DNA of 64,000 bases from contig NZ_CP144906.1 of assembly GCF_036699995.1 (NCBI RefSeq), forward strand, positions 4,096,001-4,160,000, written 5' to 3'. Source of the DNA: Clostridium beijerinckii. Its GTDB lineage: Bacteria > Bacillota > Clostridia > Clostridiales > Clostridiaceae. Every line of letters begins with the position of its first letter. The first letter of the stretch is position 1. Position numbers and translations under genes: made by a program. The notes under the pieces were generated by a model that did not search any database, had not been told where the DNA came from, and saw only the letters and a program-made list of their open reading frames with translations. Below, in pieces: positions 3,682 to 61,472 of this stretch.

Positions 3682-4207
3682 GTTGTTCCTCCTATATTGT
3701 AGATAATCATTAGTTATAATGATAGTATCCTATAGGAGAATACTTTTTATTCAAAATAATAATTTAAAATTATATAAATTCAAAATGTAATATACTTGTT
3801 CTTTCACCTTGGTCTATACATTGATATTATACGTACTTTATTTGTATTTATCTTGAATCAATACATCACAAAGTTCGTTGTAATTTTATATACTTTTTAT
3901 TCTTCCTCCAAATATAAGATATTAAATCTAAACCATTCATAGTTTCACATTAATAAATGGAACTTTACACCATGTGTAAGTATATCTATAAATTATAGAC
4001 ATTTTGTATAGATAAACAACTTAAGAGTTTGATTTACGTGGTAACTTACCGGAATCATAAATATTTTAATTACAAAAAACTATGAAAATATCGTTGAAGG
4101 TTCTAATCAGCATTCAGCTTATGGTTTATATTGAGTAAATATAAGTTGACATTAGTGATAAATTTCAAGTGCTAAGTTAATAAAGTATAGGAAGGATGAG
4201 GACTAGC
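3682..4207. other. divergent intergenic region
   Basis: Carries promoters for the leftward phytase-like gene and the rightward amidohydrolase. The middle holds a half copy of the large palindromic repeat family (4007-4125). Otherwise no ORF or RNA gene is seen. Confidence 0.5.
4007..4125 (+). repeat. half copy of the giant palindromic repeat (TATAGATAA family)
   Basis: Starts with the family terminus TATAGATAA and continues through ACCGGAATCATAAATATTTT, ACTATGAAAATATCG and TGAAGGTTCTAA. The same succession of boxes occurs in the elements at 26273-26552 and 41546-41650. The matching second arm is missing, so this is a truncated copy. Confidence 0.55.
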
Positions 4208-7802: not shown

Positions 7803-8062
7803 TATCTTATTCTTTAAAAATATTGTGGAAACTCGACTCACATTCGTTCGCTGAGTGCTCACAGAGTAAGCGACCACCATCAAATCATAGATGCTCACAG
7901 AGAAAGTTCTGCACCTATAAATTAAGCAGCTATGCTGCAATTAAGAACTTTTCACTTATAGCCAAATACAAGATTTGGAGCATCACTTTTGAGATGTCTG
8001 CTTAAGTGATTCACACCGAATCATAGATTCGGGTTCTCTACTTAAGATTGGAGGAAAATTAA
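7803..8062. repeat. hairpin-rich insert between DUF1659 and DUF2922 genes
   Basis: Contains consecutive short stem-loops: GCAGC-tat-GCTGC inside AAGTTCT...AGAACTT (about 7902-7952), CCAAATacaagATTTGG (about 7962-7977), ATCACTT...AAGTGAT (about 7980-8010) and CGAATC-atag-ATTCG (about 8015-8030). The start carries CTCGACTCAC...CGTTCGCTGAGT, which recurs in inverted orientation in the 5S-23S spacer near 61405-61440. The 60-codon ORF across it is not credible. Confidence 0.6.
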
Positions 8063-25856: not shown

Positions 25857-25976
25857 TTTAATCGCCCTCGTAATTCAATTTAATAAATTTATTAACCTAC
25901 CAAACATTTTACATCATTTTAGAGTCATTTTATAGAATTTTTTCCAATAAAGTAATATTTTCTATTTAGCATTTTA
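25857..25976. other. promoter region of apbE
   Basis: AT-rich leader between apbE and the first giant palindrome. No ORF seen. Confidence 0.35.
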
Positions 25977-26272
25977 TAGATAAACAGTATATAACTTAGA
26001 CTTATGCGCATACCTCACCGAAATGAATAATATACTTTTGTTCCAGTTTCTAGGTAATTCTGATGGGTGATTCTAAGGCTATAAAGTTGCACCCAAAGTG
26101 CTAGCCTCAAAGAACAAGCTCTGAACTAGCACATTTGGAACAACTTATAGCCAAAGAATCACATCCATCAAAATTACCAATGAAACATTCCACAAAAATA
26201 TATTACCCATTTCTAGTTGGGATATATTTCATAGTATAAATCTAACTTATAATTGGCTTATCTATATAGATG
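25977..26272. repeat. giant palindromic repeat, copy A1 (about 295 bp)
   Basis: Begins TATAGATAAAC and ends TTATCTATATA. Its two halves pair over about 200 bases (for example GTAATTCTGATGGGTGATTC with GAATCACATCCATCAAAATT), closing on GTGCTAG/CTAGCAC and an apical AGAACAAGCTCT loop. A nearly identical copy is inverted at 44533-44826. No credible ORF; non-autonomous, MITE-like or structured RNA. Confidence 0.85.
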
Positions 26273-26552
26273 AACATATTAACAAATTTACTAAAACTTT
26301 AAGCTCATATATTCACTAGAAATCATAAATATATTTGTGGAGAAAACATTTGAAAATGAGCTGTTAAAGGTTCTTAGCTGTAGGTTGTTCCATTTTAGCT
26401 TGTCAAACTGAAAGTTGGAGCATGCTAAAGTGGATACAACCTGCTGCTTAGAACCTTCAGCGATATTTTCATAGCTTTTCGGAATCAAAATATTTATGAT
26501 TTTGGTGAGTTATACGCATAAGTATATATTATAGTTGGGTTATCTATATATT
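26273..26552. repeat. giant palindromic repeat, copy B1 (about 280 bp)
   Basis: Adjacent to A1. Arms pair through AATCATAAATAT, GAAAAT, AAGGTTCT, GTTGT and TTTAGC, closing on a CTTGTC...GGAGCATGC head. Right end AGTTGGGTTATCTATATA matches the A-type terminus TATAGATAACCCAACT. Related truncated copies at 4007-4125 and 41546-41650, and a relative at 54330-54515. Confidence 0.8.
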
Positions 26553-26636
26553 TACAAGGTTTATTGCTAAAACTTACTATGAATAGTATAATCTTTTTAT
26601 GTCAAATACTTTAATTATAATAAATGCAAACTATAG

Positions 26637-26835
26637 TCTGCATTTAAGTAATAAGGGAATGGAGTGAAATTCTTCAACTACCCCAGTAACCGTGAAACTG
26701 ACGAAATCAAAGACACAATCAAAAATAACAAGTCCAACCTGTTATTTTTTGATTGTGTCTAACATGCCACTGAGAAATTGGGAAGGCTTGAAATTAGGAT
26801 GAAGTTAAGTCGGGATACCTTGTTTTATACACCGA
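26637..26835 (+). ncRNA. cobalamin riboswitch aptamer upstream of btuFCD-like genes
   Basis: Ordered conserved boxes AAGGGAAT, GTGAAATTC, ACTACCCC, GTAACCGTGA, GCCACTG, GGGAAGGC and AAGTCGGGATACCT correspond to the cobalamin riboswitch core (GGGAA, GGTGAAAnTCC, CCC, CACTG, AGnCAGGAnACC). A variable arm is enlarged by a 20-bp hairpin (26711-26760). Binding of a cobalamin in the leader should repress the importer genes that begin at 27164. Confidence 0.9.
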
Positions 26836-27163
26836 TAATATCCTCTGAGGGTGGGATATTAGGCACATGAAAATAAATTTCAAGTACAACGCCACCATGA
26901 ATATTTTTCACCAGATAAGAGAGTAAATTGATCTCATAGCAGGTCTATTAGGTCAGTCTACTTCCGAAGGATAGTTGAAAATAATCTGGTAAATGAACTT
27001 GTTATTTTTTGAATGTGACTTAAGTAATCATGCGTTTTATGAAAATAAGACTTTTAAGTTTTATTCTGATTTTTATAGGCATGTTTATTATGCTTCTATG
27101 CATACTCTCGATGGGTATGCTTTTTTTGTTACCCTTAAATACACTATATTTTAGGAGGGCATC
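26836..27163 (+). promoter_or_regulatory. expression platform / additional RNA fold of the btuF leader
   Basis: Between aptamer and ATG are AATATCC...GGATATT (about 26847-26868), a domain closed by ACCAGAT (about 26919) and ATCTGGT (26983-26990) containing CTACTTCCGAAGGATAG, then GTTATTTTTTGAATGTGACT at 27001-27020. That last arm repeats, with two mismatches, the right arm inside the aptamer (26741-26760) and can pair with the same left arm (26711-26732). The hairpin TGCATACTCTCGATGGGTATGCTTTTTTTG near 27098-27130 has a T-run and looks like the controllable terminator. Confidence 0.6.
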
Positions 27164-32701: not shown

Positions 32702-34135
32702 ATGATTAATAAGTTTCTTCTTGAAACTGTAATTTATCTTATTGAAATTATAAAGTATCTCATGACTTTGCTGGTTGGCAAAAACTTGCTTAAAAGCATT
32801 TCGGACGAACCTGTTAAGAAAGAATACCGAAAGCTTCAAGTAGATGATCAACCAATCTTTGATGTTCCCGAAAAACTTAACTATAAGCTTCTAATAGCTG
32901 AATATGAGTTTAAGCACGGCAAAGAATTTGCTCCTGTGAAACCTCGCAAAAACAAAGCGTTAGCTCCTAAGGATGTTATCTGTCCTAAGTGTGGTGCTCC
33001 ACATACCTATCTTTACGATAATAACGGAGGCCGAGGACAATATCTTTGCAAAGTCTGTGATACCACATTCAATCCTAAAAATTACTATCAGAAATCCATA
33101 GTGTTAAGATGTCCTCACTGCAGTAAAACACTTGAAAGAATCAAGGCGCGTAAGGATTTCTACGTTTATAAGTGTAAGAATGATAATTGCTCTTTTTACC
33201 AAAATAATCTTAAATCAATGACAAAATCTGAAAAACAAGATTTTAAGAAGAATCCTGGTAAGTTCAAAGTTAGATACATATTTAGAGATTTCACTTTTGA
33301 CTTTAAGCCACTTTCTAAAGAAAGTCCGGTAAAATCAAAGGTTTCTCTTCCAAACATTATGATTTCTTCTTACACCTTAGGACTCATTCTAACTTACTAC
33401 GTTAACTACGGTTTATCTTCCAGAAAGACAGCTGCATTGCTTAAAGATATTCATGATATTAAAATATCTCATCAAGCAATTTTAAACTATGTTAATGCCG
33501 TTTCAATTGTAGTTAAGCCATTTATAGATAACTACGATTATAAACTTTCTGACTCTTTCTGCGGCGATGAAACCTACATAAAAGTTAACGGTAAGTGGAA
33601 CTATATTTTCTTCTTTTTTGATGCTGTTAAAAAGATTATTCTATCTTACAGAGTATCACCACATAGAGATACCGAAACGGCTGTAAAAGCCATCGATGAT
33701 GTTCTAAGTAAGTTAAAAGAAATACCTGAAGATCTTAATCTTATAACTGATGGTAACCCTATATATCTTCTTGCACAGCACTTCTTTGCAAGCCATAGTA
33801 TAAAATTCGATGTTACTCAAGTTATAGGCTTAACCAATAAAGATGAAGTTTCAAAAGAATATAGGCCATTGAAGCAAATTATTGAACGTCTTAACCGAAC
33901 CTTTAAAGGCAATTATAGAGCTACTACTGGCTTCGGAAGTCCTAACGGGTCGGTTGCATTTGTAACTATGTTTGTGGCATACTTTAACTTTCTAAGACCA
34001 CATTCTGCCCTTGAAGGCAAAACTCCTGTAATCCTTGAAGAGTTAGAGTCAATGTCCAACATGCCTACTAGATGGTGCAAATTTATTGAACTATCTCAAG
34101 ACTTTGTTCTAAATAACTGTACAATAACTGCCTAA
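32702..34135 (+). CDS. IS6-like DDE transposase with N-terminal zinc ribbons
   Basis: 477 residues after AAAGGAGGCAAGCTATTACC. Two zinc-ribbon motifs precede the catalytic part: CPKCGAPH...CKVCDTTF (about 98-122) and CPHCSKTL...CKNDNC (about 135-162). The DDE domain shows GDETYIKVNGKW (Asp), LITDGNPIY (Asp) and IIERLNRTFKGNYR (Glu), followed by FNFLRPHSALEGKTP, the IS240/IS6 pattern. It is roughly twice the length of classical IS6 transposases (about 230 residues) because of the N-terminal extension. Acts on the element's ends, normally by replicative transposition. Confidence 0.92.
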   Translation: MINKFLLETVIYLIEIIKYLMTLLVGKNLLKSISDEPVKKEYRKLQVDDQPIFDVPEKLNYKLLIAEYEFKHGKEFAPVKPRKNKALAPKDVICPKCGAPHTYLYDNNGGRGQYLCKVCDTTFNPKNYYQKSIVLRCPHCSKTLERIKARKDFYVYKCKNDNCSFYQNNLKSMTKSEKQDFKKNPGKFKVRYIFRDFTFDFKPLSKESPVKSKVSLPNIMISSYTLGLILTYYVNYGLSSRKTAALLKDIHDIKISHQAILNYVNAVSIVVKPFIDNYDYKLSDSFCGDETYIKVNGKWNYIFFFFDAVKKIILSYRVSPHRDTETAVKAIDDVLSKLKEIPEDLNLITDGNPIYLLAQHFFASHSIKFDVTQVIGLTNKDEVSKEYRPLKQIIERLNRTFKGNYRATTGFGSPNGSVAFVTMFVAYFNFLRPHSALEGKTPVILEELESMSNMPTRWCKFIELSQDFVLNNCTITA

Positions 34136-40843: not shown

Positions 40844-41269
40844 ACCTCATCTCCTTCCATTTTCTATCTATATTTACTTATATACAAATTGACAATTAAA
40901 GTTTGCTAGTTATATATGCGTACTATGCCATAATATGTGCTTTATTATAGCTTGTCTTTAATTCTTATATAGTTTTTATGCAAAATAAAAAGCCCTTCTA
41001 ACATAAGTGTTAAAAAGACATAATAATAAAACATATTTATTCATATAAAATATGTAAATAAATTTTCATTAAAACGCCCCCTCTATCACTCGTAGAGTTT
41101 AGTCACATTAAAAAGATAACAACTCAGTATGATAGCTTATTTACTATCATACTTTATCATCACATGCACATAATAATCCTCTATGAGATGCATCTATCTT
41201 GTCATCTGACGAAAAGTTAAAATATGCATCGCATCTTAGACTTGCTATTTTCTTTAATGTGCCTTTTGG
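40844..41269 (-). promoter_or_regulatory. leader and expression platform of the cbi operon
   Basis: Between aptamer and cbiQ, minus-strand RNA would contain AGTATGATAG-taaataag-CTATCATACT (about 41133-41160), a perfect 10-bp stem, then GTTGTTATCTTTTTAATGTG, and CTCTA...TAGAG before a G-rich stretch (about 41078-41100). Either could be the regulated terminator. The remainder is the promoter-distal leader; no ORF. Confidence 0.55.
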
Positions 41270-41412
41270 TGCAAAACATAGGCAGGTCTTCTGACTTAAG
41301 AATCATCATTTAAATACGCCTTCCCTATCTTTAAGTGGCATCCAATGTATTTAAACTCCTCTAATACAGCTACGGGATAGTTTAGGAATTTCACCTAATT
41401 CCCTTTTAATTA
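41270..41412 (-). ncRNA. cobalamin riboswitch aptamer upstream of cbiQOMN
   Basis: Reading the minus strand: AAAAGGGAATTAGGTGAAAT, TTCC, CTATCCCGTAGCTGT, GGATGCCACT, GATAGGGAAGGC, AAGTCAGAAGACCTGCCTAT. All core boxes of the cobalamin riboswitch are present in order and spacing, including the AGTCAGAAGACCTGCC tail. Cobalt uptake is expected to fall when cobalamin is abundant. Confidence 0.95.
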
Positions 41413-41545
41413 ATCAAAAATCACTTTAAAAATTTAATTAAGTAATTTTAGTTAAACCTATATTTTATTTATAAAATTTTGCTAATTTGCATTTATATTC
41501 TTAACCATAACATTTTTAGTAAAAAAAATCAATCCAATTTTCTAC

Positions 41546-41650
41546 TGTATAGATAACCCAACTATAATATATCCTTATGCTTATAACTCACCGAAATCAT
41601 AAATATTTTGATTCCGAAAAACTATGAAAATATGAACTTAAAGACTGGCT
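41546..41650 (+). repeat. half copy of the giant palindromic repeat
   Basis: TATAGATAACCCAACTATAA, TTATGCTTATAACTCACCG, AATCATAAATATTTTGATTC and AACTATGAAAATATGAAC match in inverted orientation the right part of the element at 26273-26552. The second arm is not evident. A 60-codon frame across it is rejected. Confidence 0.7.
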
Positions 41651-44532: not shown

Positions 44533-44826
44533 TATAGATAAGCCAATTATAAGTTAGATTTATACTATGAAATATATCCCAACTAGAAATGGGTAATATA
44601 CTTTTGTGGAATGTTTCATTGGTAATTTTGATGGATGTGATTCTTTGGCTATAAGTTGTTCAAAATGTGCTAGTTCAAAGCTTGTTCTTTGAGGCTAGCA
44701 CTTTGGGTGCAACTTTATAGACTTAGAATCACCCATCAGAATTACCTAGAAACTGGAACAAAAGTATATTATTCATTTCGGCGAGTTATATGCATAAGTT
44801 CAGGTCTTAGTTGGGTTATCTATACC
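44533..44826. repeat. giant palindromic repeat, copy A2 (inverted relative to A1)
   Basis: TATAGATAAGCCAATTATAA at the left, AGTTGGGTTATCTATA at the right. Internally AAGTTGTTCAAAATGTGCTA, AGCTTGTTCTTTGAGGCTAG, CACTTTGGGTGCAACTTTAT: nearly identical to A1 read on the other strand, including both halves of the stem. A further partial B-type arm follows at about 44830-44910 (AAATTCTCATAGTCC). Confidence 0.87.
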
Positions 44827-54175: not shown

Positions 54176-54290
54176 ATATATATATGTTGCAATTCACATT
54201 TCACAATTCACAATTACAGCTAAAATTCTTTTAATATTTTTAGAATTATGCTGAAGAATTATTTTGGCAATATATATATCATAAACAGAG
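54176..54290 (+). repeat. MITE-like palindromic repeat, copy 3
   Basis: TATATATGTTGCAATTCACA then CAATTACAGCTAAAATTCTT, AATATTTTTAGAATTATGCT, ATTTTGGCAATATATATA: same as 18896-18986 with a short internal duplication (CACATTTCACAATTCAC). Confidence 0.8.
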
Positions 54291-54329: not shown

Positions 54330-54515
54330 TAAGTAGGCATTTTAAAATAAGCTGCTTAGATTCTTAATGAGAAGTTGTTCCACTTACTGCTTGTCACATT
54401 GAAAGTGGAACATGCAGTAATAAGTGCAACCTTCAATTTAGAACATTTCAGCGAAATTTTCATAGTCCTATAGAACAAATATGTATTCAATTTCTACTGA
54501 GATTTATATAAATTT
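54330..54515. repeat. B-type giant palindrome relative
   Basis: GTTGTTCCACTTACTGCTTG, TCACATTGAAAGTGGAACAT, GCAGTAATAAGTGCAACC form the head. Flanked by TTCTTAATGAG and CATTTCAGCGAAATTTTCAT. Same conserved head (GTTGT, CTTGTC, CATGC, GCAAC) as 26273-26552 with compensating stem changes. Confidence 0.72.
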
Positions 54516-54876
54516 GATTTTGAACATTATATTATTTCAACATGTATAGCTAGATGAATTTAGCTCAAAAGAAATGGGGAATGATGCCACAATTTTGGTT
54601 ATTAAAAACCATTACAATGATGCATTTATATGTTATGATTTAATTGTAATCATTCCCAATTCCTTGTTTGCAGAGTGATATATTCATATATATCACTCCT
54701 CCTTACTCATTAGCCTTCTTACTCACTAATCTTCCAAAGTTTCCTTATACCTCTCCGCAAAATAGATCTCAATTTAATCAATTTTTATATTTACACTATG
54801 ATTTATCATTTTCTACTGGTATGAAGTTTGCATCTAACCTAAACATTAATAAATAAAATCACCATGTAAGTCTCTT
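54516..54876. other. non-coding region
   Basis: AT-rich; GGGAATGATGCCACAATTTT...TGTAATCATTCCCAATTCC (about 54578-54664) is a partial long inverted repeat. A 62-codon frame on the plus strand lacks a binding site and is rejected. Confidence 0.4.
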
Positions 54877-57557: not shown

Positions 57558-59361
57558 GGTACTGTCAAAGTTTTTTATCTAACTAAGGCAGCAACCCTTT
57601 AATTTTTCTTATTTTTTATATAAATAACTTGCCACCCCCAAAAAGTTAAGATATTTTATACTTGCAAAACAAAAACACTGAACTAAAAAAGGAGGCAAGC
57701 TATTACCATGATTAATAAGTTTCTTCTTGAAACTGTAATTTATCTTATTGAAATTATAAAGTATCTCATGACTTTGCTGGTTGGCAAAAACTTGCTTAAA
57801 AGCATTTCGGACGAACCTGTTAAGAAAGAATACCGAAAGCTTCAAGTAGATGATCAACCAATCTTTGATGTTCCCGAAAAACTTAACTATAAGCTTCTAA
57901 TAGCTGAATATGAGTTTAAGCACGGCAAAGAATTTGCTCCTGTGAAACCTCGCAAAAACAAAGCGTTAGCTCCTAAGGATGTTATCTGTCCTAAGTGTGG
58001 TGCTCCACATACCTATCTTTACGATAATAACGGAGGCCGAGGACAATATCTTTGCAAAGTCTGTGATACCACATTCAATCCTAAAAATTACTATCAGAAA
58101 TCCATAGTGTTAAGATGTCCTCACTGCAGTAAAACACTTGAAAGAATCAAGGCGCGTAAGGATTTCTACGTTTATAAGTGTAAGAATGATAATTGCTCTT
58201 TTTACCAAAATAATCTTAAATCAATGACAAAATCTGAAAAACAAGATTTTAAGAAGAATCCTGGTAAGTTCAAAGTTAGATACATATTTAGAGATTTCAC
58301 TTTTGACTTTAAGCCACTTTCTAAAGAAAGTCCGGTAAAATCAAAGGTTTCTCTTCCAAACATTATGATTTCTTCTTACACCTTAGGACTCATTCTAACT
58401 TACTACGTTAACTACGGTTTATCTTCCAGAAAGACAGCTGCATTGCTTAAAGATATTCATGATATTAAAATATCTCATCAAGCAATTTTAAACTATGTTA
58501 ATGCCGTTTCAATTGTAGTTAAGCCATTTATAGATAACTACGATTATAAACTTTCTGACTCTTTCTGCGGCGATGAAACCTACATAAAAGTTAACGGTAA
58601 GTGGAACTATATTTTCTTCTTTTTTGATGCTGTTAAAAAGATTATTCTATCTTACAGAGTATCACCACATAGAGATACCGAAACGGCTGTAAAAGCCATC
58701 GATGATGTTCTAAGTAAGTTAAAAGAAATACCTGAAGATCTTAATCTTATAACTGATGGTAACCCTATATATCTTCTTGCACAGCACTTCTTTGCAAGCC
58801 ATAGTATAAAATTCGATGTTACTCAAGTTATAGGCTTAACCAATAAAGATGAAGTTTCAAAAGAATATAGGCCATTGAAGCAAATTATTGAACGTCTTAA
58901 CCGAACCTTTAAAGGCAATTATAGAGCTACTACTGGCTTCGGAAGTCCTAACGGGTCGGTTGCATTTGTAACTATGTTTGTGGCATACTTTAACTTTCTA
59001 AGACCACATTCTGCCCTTGAAGGCAAAACTCCTGTAATCCTTGAAGAGTTAGAGTCAATGTCCAACATGCCTACTAGATGGTGCAAATTTATTGAACTAT
59101 CTCAAGACTTTGTTCTAAATAACTGTACAATAACTGCCTAATGATCTAAAGCAGTTGGTGAAACGCACCCTTGACACGCCCACAAAGATAAATGGTAAAA
59201 TATCTCAATAGGCGGGTCTATTAGTCATGTTCAAAATTATCATTCACCCGTCCTTAACTGCCTAAGACCATTTATCTTTAGGTGTGTCAAGGGCAACTAG
59301 CAAACATAATTTAACATTAAATGGTAGTTGGATTGATTTTTCATATATTTTTTACACTACC
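57558..59361 (+). mobile_element. IS6/IS240-like insertion sequence, copy 2 (1804 bp)
   Basis: Same ends, length and orientation as the 32552 copy; every stretch compared is identical. Flanks are CAATCGAC on the left and TAAATTTA on the right: no target duplication. This indicates that one flank has been replaced by deletion or recombination after insertion. Confidence 0.92.
57708..59141 (+). CDS. IS6-like DDE transposase, second copy
   Basis: 477 residues, identical in sequence to the product of the gene at 32702: zinc ribbons CPKCGAPH and CPHCSKTL, catalytic GDETYIKV, ITDGNPIY, IIERLNRTFK. Intact, so both copies could supply transposase. The gene reads outward from the prophage remnant into the region before the rRNA operon. 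Confidence 0.92.
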   Translation: MINKFLLETVIYLIEIIKYLMTLLVGKNLLKSISDEPVKKEYRKLQVDDQPIFDVPEKLNYKLLIAEYEFKHGKEFAPVKPRKNKALAPKDVICPKCGAPHTYLYDNNGGRGQYLCKVCDTTFNPKNYYQKSIVLRCPHCSKTLERIKARKDFYVYKCKNDNCSFYQNNLKSMTKSEKQDFKKNPGKFKVRYIFRDFTFDFKPLSKESPVKSKVSLPNIMISSYTLGLILTYYVNYGLSSRKTAALLKDIHDIKISHQAILNYVNAVSIVVKPFIDNYDYKLSDSFCGDETYIKVNGKWNYIFFFFDAVKKIILSYRVSPHRDTETAVKAIDDVLSKLKEIPEDLNLITDGNPIYLLAQHFFASHSIKFDVTQVIGLTNKDEVSKEYRPLKQIIERLNRTFKGNYRATTGFGSPNGSVAFVTMFVAYFNFLRPHSALEGKTPVILEELESMSNMPTRWCKFIELSQDFVLNNCTITA

Positions 59362-61198: not shown

Positions 61199-61472
61199 TG
61201 CATGTTTTTCCCAAATCTTCGATTTGGTTGAAAAACAGCACACCAACGAACGTATGTGAGTTAGTGTTTCCTTAGAAAAAAATAACCCAAGTTCATCGCT
61301 TATACTATTTTTTCAGCAATTATATTAAATAATTACTACTTAAAAGAACCTTGTTCTTTCAAAATTGCACATAAGTGAGAGTCCAAATTTTATATTTGGA
61401 TACTCGAACTTACTCAGCGAACGCCAGTGAGTCGAGCTTCCTCTATTAATGTATATTACAACTTGATTATAT
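61199..61472 (-). other. 23S-5S rRNA spacer
   Basis: Contains stems CCAAAT-cttcg-ATTTGG with flanks, GTGAGAGTCCAAATTTTATA (also at 17664-17702), CTCGACTCACTGGCGTTCGC (related to the insert at 7803), and the usual TTGAAAGAACAAGG-type processing region. No tRNA gene. Confidence 0.8.

What the first reader, a model, noticed from the sequence alone, without database searches (positions are those of the whole stretch)
25977..26552. Family of giant (about 280-300 bp) palindromic elements with a conserved head
Seen: A1 (25977-26272) and A2 (44533-44826, inverted) are near-identical and self-complementary over about 200 bases. B1 (26273-26552) and a relative at 54330-54515 share the layout but differ in stem sequence while keeping pairing. 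All share termini TATAGATAA and a head with GTTGT ... CTTGT(C/T) ... GCAAC. Halves lie at 4007-4125 and 41546-41650. Changed stems with kept pairing suggest selection on structure, as in a structured RNA or a transposon needing folded ends, rather than simple decay. No ORF. I know of no named family with this head; that may be a limit of memory.
Basis: partly seen in the sequence, partly recalled or inferred. Interest (0 to 1): 0.7.

Follow-up and report, generated by a model that had tools for sequence, protein, structure and literature searches.

The report
Giant hairpin transposon relatives in Clostridium
The window carries several copies of a large family of roughly 290-480-base hairpin elements, probably moved by a known type of bacterial transposase, whose folded shape has been kept while the sequence of the stems changed; this suggests that a mobile element carries a shaped RNA or DNA with a job of its own.

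Summary
A1, B1, A2 and the 54.4-kb copy belong to one superfamily with at least 127 places in this 5.55-Mb Clostridium genome. Complete copies run from TATAGATAA to TTATCTATA, insert at TA (one clean empty site) and match no Rfam family at gathering score.

Across 35 copies from 10 subfamilies, 42 of 59 pairs changed on both sides with pairing kept; covariation score 0.60 against 0.21 (shuffled) and 0.08-0.13 (slid). Sixteen unpaired core columns are at least 90% identical.

The likely mover is in a relative: an IS630-family (DDE_3) transposase whose right end is 94% identical over 34 nt to a hairpin 5' end, lying directly between an A and a B copy. The window's own genome has no match to it at E 1e-10.

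So these are IS630-type MITEs, like pneumococcal RUP, but larger, modular (hairpins nested in hairpins) and shape-conserved. G-U pairs exceed A-C mismatches on one strand, but that evidence is moderate and absent in two subfamilies. Found in 19 of 68 genus genomes and in none of 48 other genera sampled. New variant of a known kind; the fold's function is open.

The parts
25975..26266 (-). Element A1 (A type, 292 nt), 3' end on the left
   Evidence: Ends TATAGATAA/TTATCTATA exact; head found by CM at 26066-26162, 75.2 bits; fold z -10.9
26265..26548 (+). Element B1 (B type, 284 nt, 5' end about 28 nt short), abutting A1 5' end to 5' end
   Evidence: CM head 26367-26458, 82.6 bits
44533..44824 (+). 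Element A2 (A type, 292 nt)
   Evidence: CM head 44637-44733, 69.3 bits
54332..54470 (+). C-type copy: head and inner stem, terminal repeats not recognisable
   Evidence: CM head 54357-54448, 50.5 bits
4007..4112 (-). Truncated B-type element: 3' arm only
   Evidence: 86% identity to positions 207-313 of a complete copy
41548..41633 (-). Truncated B-type element: 3' arm only; relative G002 has a complete 287-nt element of another subfamily at the corresponding place
   Evidence: 95% identity; block ends 41596/41676 against 42869/43097 in G002
61372..61444 (+). Fragment of the family between the 5S and 23S rRNA genes
   Evidence: 89% identity over 73 nt; rRNA positions
7827..7892 (-). Weak fragment of the family
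   Evidence: 76% identity over 66 nt, 53.6 bits
29925..29935 (.). Empty target site: G002 holds a B-type element here, flanked by a duplicated TA
   Evidence: Empty GCGAATATAATTAG; filled GCGAATATA[TAGATA...ATCTA]TAATTA
54795..54810 (.). Second unoccupied site: G002 holds a 292-nt A-type element here; right junction carries 14 extra nt, so not perfectly clean

Best explanation
These are non-autonomous DNA transposons (MITEs) that an IS630-family transposase recognises by their TATAGATAA-type ends and inserts at TA dinucleotides (target and shared ends shown; mobilisation in trans inferred). Unlike ordinary MITEs, the whole body between the ends is a conserved shape: a long interrupted stem with a near-invariant head (GTTGTTCCA ... 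GCTTGT ... GGnGCAAC) and conserved internal loops. Stems drift by paired changes and tolerate added hairpin domains at fixed points. The most likely reason is selection, acting along the chain of copies that keep transposing, on the folded form of one strand. Transcribed RNA is the best guess: a compact hairpin that limits harm to the neighbouring gene or is bound or cut by a host factor. Individual copies then decay with little selection (inferred). The confidence given is for the transposon part; for selection on one strand's fold I would say about 0.5.
For: TA target duplication and symmetric TAGATA...ATCTA ends at a clean empty site. In 102 complete copies no direct repeat beyond TATA exceeds shuffled flanks (TATA is exact at both ends in 77 of 102). 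G002 has an IS630 transposase (NF033545, 107 bits for the second frame, 80 bits, below the cut-off of 100, for the first; DDE_3, 95 bits) with ends TATAGATATCCAAA.../...TTTGTTTATCTATA, the right end 94% identical over 34 nt to a hairpin 5' end, directly between an A and a B copy. G003 has three partial relatives (residues 96-190, 80-81% aa), cut by contig ends, with 87.5-90.6% end matches over 32 nt; two of the three have hairpin sequence abutting. Covariation: 42/59 pairs, score 0.599, 0/500 shuffles reach it. The + strand folds more stably than its complement in 54 of 54 own-genome copies folded (65 loci considered, 6 without both ends and 5 outside 230-360 nt left out). On a structure chosen without G-U pairs (33 pairs and two 1x1 mismatches), parsimony over 102 copies gives WC->GU 9 and WC->AC 2 on internal branches (p 0.065), 43 and 23 on terminal ones (p 0.019).
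Against: Strand asymmetry is not uniform: consensus G-U counts on + and - strand are 11:2, 8:2, 5:1, 7:2, 7:3 in five groups but 1:3 and 5:6 in two. Singleton changes 52 GU to 38 AC, p 0.17; columns with variants 66 to 45, p 0.057. Internal branches show 73 complete double changes against 22 one-sided changes from a WC pair (9 GU, 2 AC, 11 other): few intermediates, which also fits template-directed correction of a palindrome. No transcript data. The own genome holds no copy of the matching transposase (0 matches at E 1e-10). Seven of 17 element-bearing genomes show no DDE_3 match, although one of these seven, G021, has fragments related to the transposase.
Confidence: 0.8

Rival explanations
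1. The pairing is kept by mutation, not selection: hairpin-templated correction or arm-to-arm conversion makes the palindrome self-healing in an otherwise ordinary IS630 MITE.
For: 73 double changes on internal branches with few half-changed intermediates; G002 carries other subfamily content at the A1-B1 and 41.5-kb sites, which suggests exchange or replacement.
Against: Self-healing should erase mismatches, yet 16 unpaired core columns are at least 90% identical over 35 copies and an internal loop is seen in all ten groups. It predicts no G-U/A-C bias, but 43:23 and 9:2 are seen.
Confidence: 0.3
2. The fold acts as DNA: a cruciform or single-stranded hairpin aids transposition, excision or target choice.
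For: Both strands fold strongly; a G-T over A-C preference would also arise in single-stranded DNA, so one search does not separate RNA from ssDNA.
Against: A TA duplication fits ordinary double-strand DDE transposition (recalled knowledge). The G002 IS has no such hairpin body that I could see in its 1.2 kb. Orientation relative to the replication fork is not clearly biased (73 of 127 against it, counted; origin at dnaA).
Confidence: 0.2
3. It is a cellular structured RNA family that merely came to be flanked by IS ends.
For: Near-invariant head over 10 subfamilies.
Against: Copy numbers differ widely between genomes (1 to 3 in three genomes, 127 places in the own one) and a site is empty in a 97%-identical pair; flanking gene orientation and distance vary; no Rfam match at gathering score.
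Confidence: 0.07
4. Chance or low-complexity palindromes of an AT-rich genome.
For: AT-rich sequence folds easily.
Against: 0 of 200 shuffles fold as well; 127 places match one model; no match in 48 other genera of the order sample.
Confidence: 0.005

Closest known systems
RUP (Streptococcus pneumoniae), proposed to be moved by IS630-Spn1
   Same: Non-coding, intergenic, 108 copies, TA target, ends like those of an IS630-family IS, transcripts would fold (PMC2229807 and PMC3049150, passages read)
   Different: RUP is a simple 107-bp element; here about 290-480 nt, 10 subfamilies, covarying stems, a near-invariant head and nested hairpin domains
Correia/NEMIS elements (Neisseria)
   Same: TA at the ends, TIRs, hairpin transcripts; a ~155-bp form with a 50-bp internal insert (PMC2229807, passages read); evidence that RNase III cuts their transcripts (PMC3049150, passage read)
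   Different: About half the size or less; no body-wide covariation mentioned in the passages I read; sequences were not compared here
BOX elements (Streptococcus)
   Same: Modular: a variable number of internal boxB modules that fold largely apart from the rest of the RNA; over-represented between convergent genes (PMC3049150, passages and section 6 read)
   Different: BOX ends are compared with ISSpn2, not IS630; boxB modules are in tandem, here different hairpins are nested at an apex or set in one arm
IS630-family IS (NCBIfam NF033545, Pfam DDE_3)
   Same: Similar ends; found touching the hairpins in G002 and in two of three G003 loci
   Different: Codes for a transposase; no hairpin body seen

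Membership tests
IS630-mobilised MITE | Non-coding, with terminal inverted repeats | tested here: met
   TATAGATAA/TTATCTATA with at most 1 mismatch per end in 102 complete copies, which were selected by that rule; no ORF of 80 aa inside the window copies
IS630-mobilised MITE | TA target-site duplication | tested here: met
   One clean empty/filled pair (window 29.93 kb); a second pair agrees on the left but has 14 extra nt on the right; no longer duplication in 102 copies
IS630-mobilised MITE | Ends match an IS630-family IS | tested here: met
   G002 IS right end 94% over 34 nt; three G003 relatives 87.5-90.6% over 32 nt; of 28 DDE_3 loci scanned only the G002 one showed both such ends, several being cut by contig ends
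IS630-mobilised MITE | Transposition in trans by that transposase | not testable with these tools
   Needs a transposition or binding assay
RUP | 107-bp element of Streptococcus | tested here: not met
   About 290-480 nt; in the sampled order found only in one Clostridium genus; streptococci not searched
BOX | boxA-boxB-boxC architecture with tandem boxB | tested here: not met
   Modules here are nested hairpins at fixed apex or arm points
IS200/IS605 REP-type (single-strand) elements | No target-site duplication | tested here: not met
   TA duplication. That this defines the family is recalled knowledge
Known structured RNA (Rfam 15) | Match to a covariance model at gathering score | tested here: not met
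   None over the elements; all 7 weak matches (E 0.047 and up, mostly microRNA-type hairpins) lie below gathering score
Structure-conserved nucleic acid | Covariation above shuffled and slid controls | tested here: met
   the shuffle control does not remove relatedness of copies, the slid control keeps it, but the structure came from the same alignment, which favours it

The most novel reading that the evidence does not exclude
A mobile, shape-conserved RNA: an IS630-borne ~300-nt RNA hairpin, with a near-invariant head that binds a host factor, that evolves like a structured ncRNA (compensatory stems, gain of nested hairpin domains) and spreads as a DNA transposon to over a hundred places per genome, its 3' end next to genes.
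Probability: 0.35. Interest if true: 0.78.

Novelty: new variant of a known kind. Interest (0 to 1): 0.52.

Why it matters
MITE hairpins are usually treated as the remains of IS ends. A MITE family with body-wide covariation, a near-invariant head and modular domain gain offers a natural data set, over a hundred copies in one genome, for asking whether a transposon's RNA or DNA shape is itself selected. It is also a repeat family, apparently undescribed in the library I could search, that fills intergenic DNA in Clostridium species such as C. beijerinckii and could confuse operon, terminator and sRNA prediction there.

Tried and rejected
Known RNA family: no Rfam match at gathering score. Plasmid or phage origin: B1 finds nothing in either collection in distant mode; A1 was not tried there. 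The own genome's only DDE_3 match (two adjoining rows, 5539815-5540241, with stops; about 35% identical to the G002 protein) was considered as the mover and set aside: no matching ends. Of 28 DDE_3 loci scanned for ends (L235-L261 and L113) only the G002 one showed both; several are cut by contig ends and could not be judged. A2 as a test of target duplication was set aside: G002 has a larger deletion there. The large + over - energy difference was first taken as strong proof of RNA selection. On closer look a few fixed G-U positions, some shared by descent, carry part of it, and the strand-neutral tests are weaker, so it is reported as moderate. A replication-fork orientation bias is not clear (73 against 54). 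Module hits flanked by hairpin sequence on both sides: M1 40 of 41, M1b 29 of 29, M2 13 of 13, M3 25 of 32, M4 13 of 16, M5 25 of 36; hits with no hairpin sequence beside them: 1, 0, 0, 1, 3, 6. The loci were fetched for hairpins, so this is biased, and M4/M5-type modules may occur alone. Seven hits of the genome contigs pattern scan in unrelated taxa (L133, L144, L147, L152, L164, L172, L191) gave no match to the head model, while the six Clostridium or Bacillota loci given beside them all did: the seven are chance.

Rows dropped: of 104 candidate complete copies, one of impossible length was removed (103 left), and one palindromic copy seen on both strands was dropped (102 left), but not. 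One module-bearing row (L224) was left out of the head model. In one search copies without a gene call on both sides were left out (87 of 102 kept).

Full report
What is there. The window is bases 4,096,001-4,160,000 of a 5.55-Mb single-contig genome. A1 and B1 lie end to end between an ApbE-family gene and, behind a cobalamin riboswitch, genes for a periplasmic-binding-protein/FecCD/ABC transporter. A DNA search with A1 gives 82 match rows in the own genome, with B1 105 rows, with the 54.3-kb copy 45 rows (many copies give several rows). A covariance model of the 94-position head gives 141 rows, 127 places after merging the two strands of one place. This is a lower bound, since 150 of 3453 candidates were scored.

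Anatomy. Complete copies run TATAGATAA...TTATCTATA. I define + as the strand in which the arm carrying the optional ~20-nt module is 5'; A1 is then -, B1 and A2 +. From 234 loci held at the time I collected 103 complete copies with at most one mismatch per end (102 after removing one palindrome seen on both strands). They fall into 11 similarity groups, 10 after that removal. An alignment of 35 representatives of the 10 groups has 25 invariant columns, among them GTTGTTC, GCT-G and AAC of the head. The terminal 8 + 8 columns average 97% identity, the paired core 73%, the unpaired core 71%.

Covariation. RNAalifold on the 35 copies gives 59 pairs; 41 have at least one copy with both sides changed and the pair kept (42 by the counting tool). 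The score is 0.599 against 0.209 +/- 0.008 in shuffles and 0.08-0.13 when one arm is slid by 1-3 columns; 95.3% of cells pair, against 40-45% when slid. Sixteen unpaired core columns are at least 90% identical, so some mismatches and loops are kept as well as stems.

Modules. A-type copies may carry a ~50-nt hairpin at the apex, and a second hairpin of the same pattern nested inside the first. Two of the 11 long-head own-genome copies printed carry a ~78-nt module in one arm. A ~20-nt module sits at the same arm position in A and B types. A B-type copy of about 466 nt in G002 has two further modules.

Mobility. Relative G002 is about 97% identical around A1-B1. At window 29.93 kb it has an insertion absent from the window: empty GCGAATATAATTAG, filled GCGAATATA[TAGATA...ATCTA]TAATTA, that is, a TA duplication. 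At 54.80 kb it has a 292-nt A-type copy, left junction as expected, right junction with 14 extra nt. In 102 complete copies no direct repeat of 1-8 nt beyond TATA is commoner than in shuffled flanks. At the A1-B1 site G002 has the same left junction but a B copy (-) followed by an A copy (+), the reverse order of the window; G003 has no element there but other sequence.

The mover. The only DDE_3 match in the own genome is a broken, distant one without matching ends. Among 68 genus genomes DDE_3 occurs in 14, of which 10 are among the 17 that carry A1-like elements (counted by me; genome size is a confounder). One, in G002, has ends TATAGATATCCAAACTAATAAATACACTTATG... and ...AATAAGTCTAATTCTAAATTTGTTTATCTATA and lies directly between an A copy and a B copy whose 5' ends face it. 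It is IS630 family. Its right end is 94% identical over 34 nt to a hairpin 5' end. G003 holds three partial relatives cut by contig ends (80-81% aa over residues 96-190) with end matches of 87.5-90.6% over 32 nt; two of the three have hairpin sequence abutting. Remoter relatives at 46-67% aa are in G021 and G022, also element-positive, without clear ends.

Which strand. The + strand folds more stably than its complement in 54 of 54 own-genome copies folded and in 7 of 7 subfamily alignments. Because a fold chosen with G-U pairs favours such a result, I repeated the count on structures chosen without G-U pairs. Columns with variants: 66 GU to 45 AC, p 0.057. Parsimony over 102 copies: internal branches 9 to 2 (p 0.065), terminal branches 43 to 23 (p 0.019). 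Singletons within groups, counted on the ordinary fold: 52 to 38, p 0.17. Consensus folds show the bias in five groups and not in two. I read this as moderate evidence for selection on one strand's fold; it does not separate RNA from single-stranded DNA.

Position. In the 87 of 102 copies with a gene call on both sides, the 3' end is nearer to a gene in 73 (median 33 against 286 bp, sign test p 9e-11); in the own genome alone 30 of 38 (p 0.0005). The bias is weaker, 23 of 32 (p 0.02), where no element-like sequence lies in either flank. Element-like sequence lies within 350 bp of the 5' end in 54 and of the 3' end in 9 of 102. Genes 3' of the element are antisense to it in 59 of 87, but only 21 of 38 in the own genome (all). 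Genes were simple ORFs of 100 codons or more, not annotations, and copies in related genomes may share insertions. None of the 127 places lies in the 1.32 Mb around dnaA (dnaA at coordinate 1), a pattern noticed after the fact.

Range. A1 DNA matches 17 of 68 genus genomes. The head model matches 17 of 194 genomes drawn from the order, all in the same genus and none in the 48 other genera (stricter filters were used there); it adds G017 and G067, making 19 of 68 in the genus by either method. Seven pattern hits in unrelated taxa do not match the model. No match of B1 in the plasmid or phage collections.

Judgement. What it is: IS630-type MITEs, confidence about 0.8. What it works like: RUP or Correia elements in mobility, BOX elements in modularity. 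What is new: size, body-wide covariation, near-invariant head, nested modules. I saw no description of it in nine paper searches; most papers of subscription journals are not in that library, so absence from print is not shown. For PMC3049150 I saw passages and section 6; for PMC2229807, PMC2864571 and PMC2965389, passages only; all others, listings only.

Noticed in passing
G000:C1, whole genome: None of 127 element places lies in the 1.32 Mb flanking dnaA (first 955 kb and last 364 kb), 24% of the genome. Post hoc, but the DNA searches list none there either.
   Followed up: partly
window 25975-26548 and G002 L106: At the same site two relatives carry the A-B pair in opposite order and orientation; at 41.5 kb a half element of one subfamily faces a complete element of another. 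Sites seem to be refilled or exchanged.
   Followed up: partly
102 complete copies: Second elements gather on the 5' side (54 of 102) and hardly on the 3' side (9 of 102); the 3' end lies close to genes. No mechanism found.
   Followed up: partly
window 32702-34135 and 57708-59141: Two 477-aa ORFs with a DDE_Tnp_IS240/rve domain and a zinc ribbon, giving identical Pfam scores; probably two copies of one transposase.
   Followed up: no
window 40870 region; G002 L107: A sequence of about 107 nt (TTGCAATTCACAATGCACAATGCACATTTCACAATTTACAATTACAGCTAAAATTC...) inserted in G002; similar text stands at window 54200-54290. Looks like another small repeat family.
   Followed up: no
5' flanks of several copies, L086: A recurring end TATAGGGTTCC...CAATGAGA..C..AACTTATG, also seen beside a C-type copy, suggests a related family with a different terminal repeat.
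   Followed up: no
window 26615-26836 (+) and 41267-41443 (-): Two cobalamin riboswitches, the first just downstream of A1-B1.
   Followed up: no
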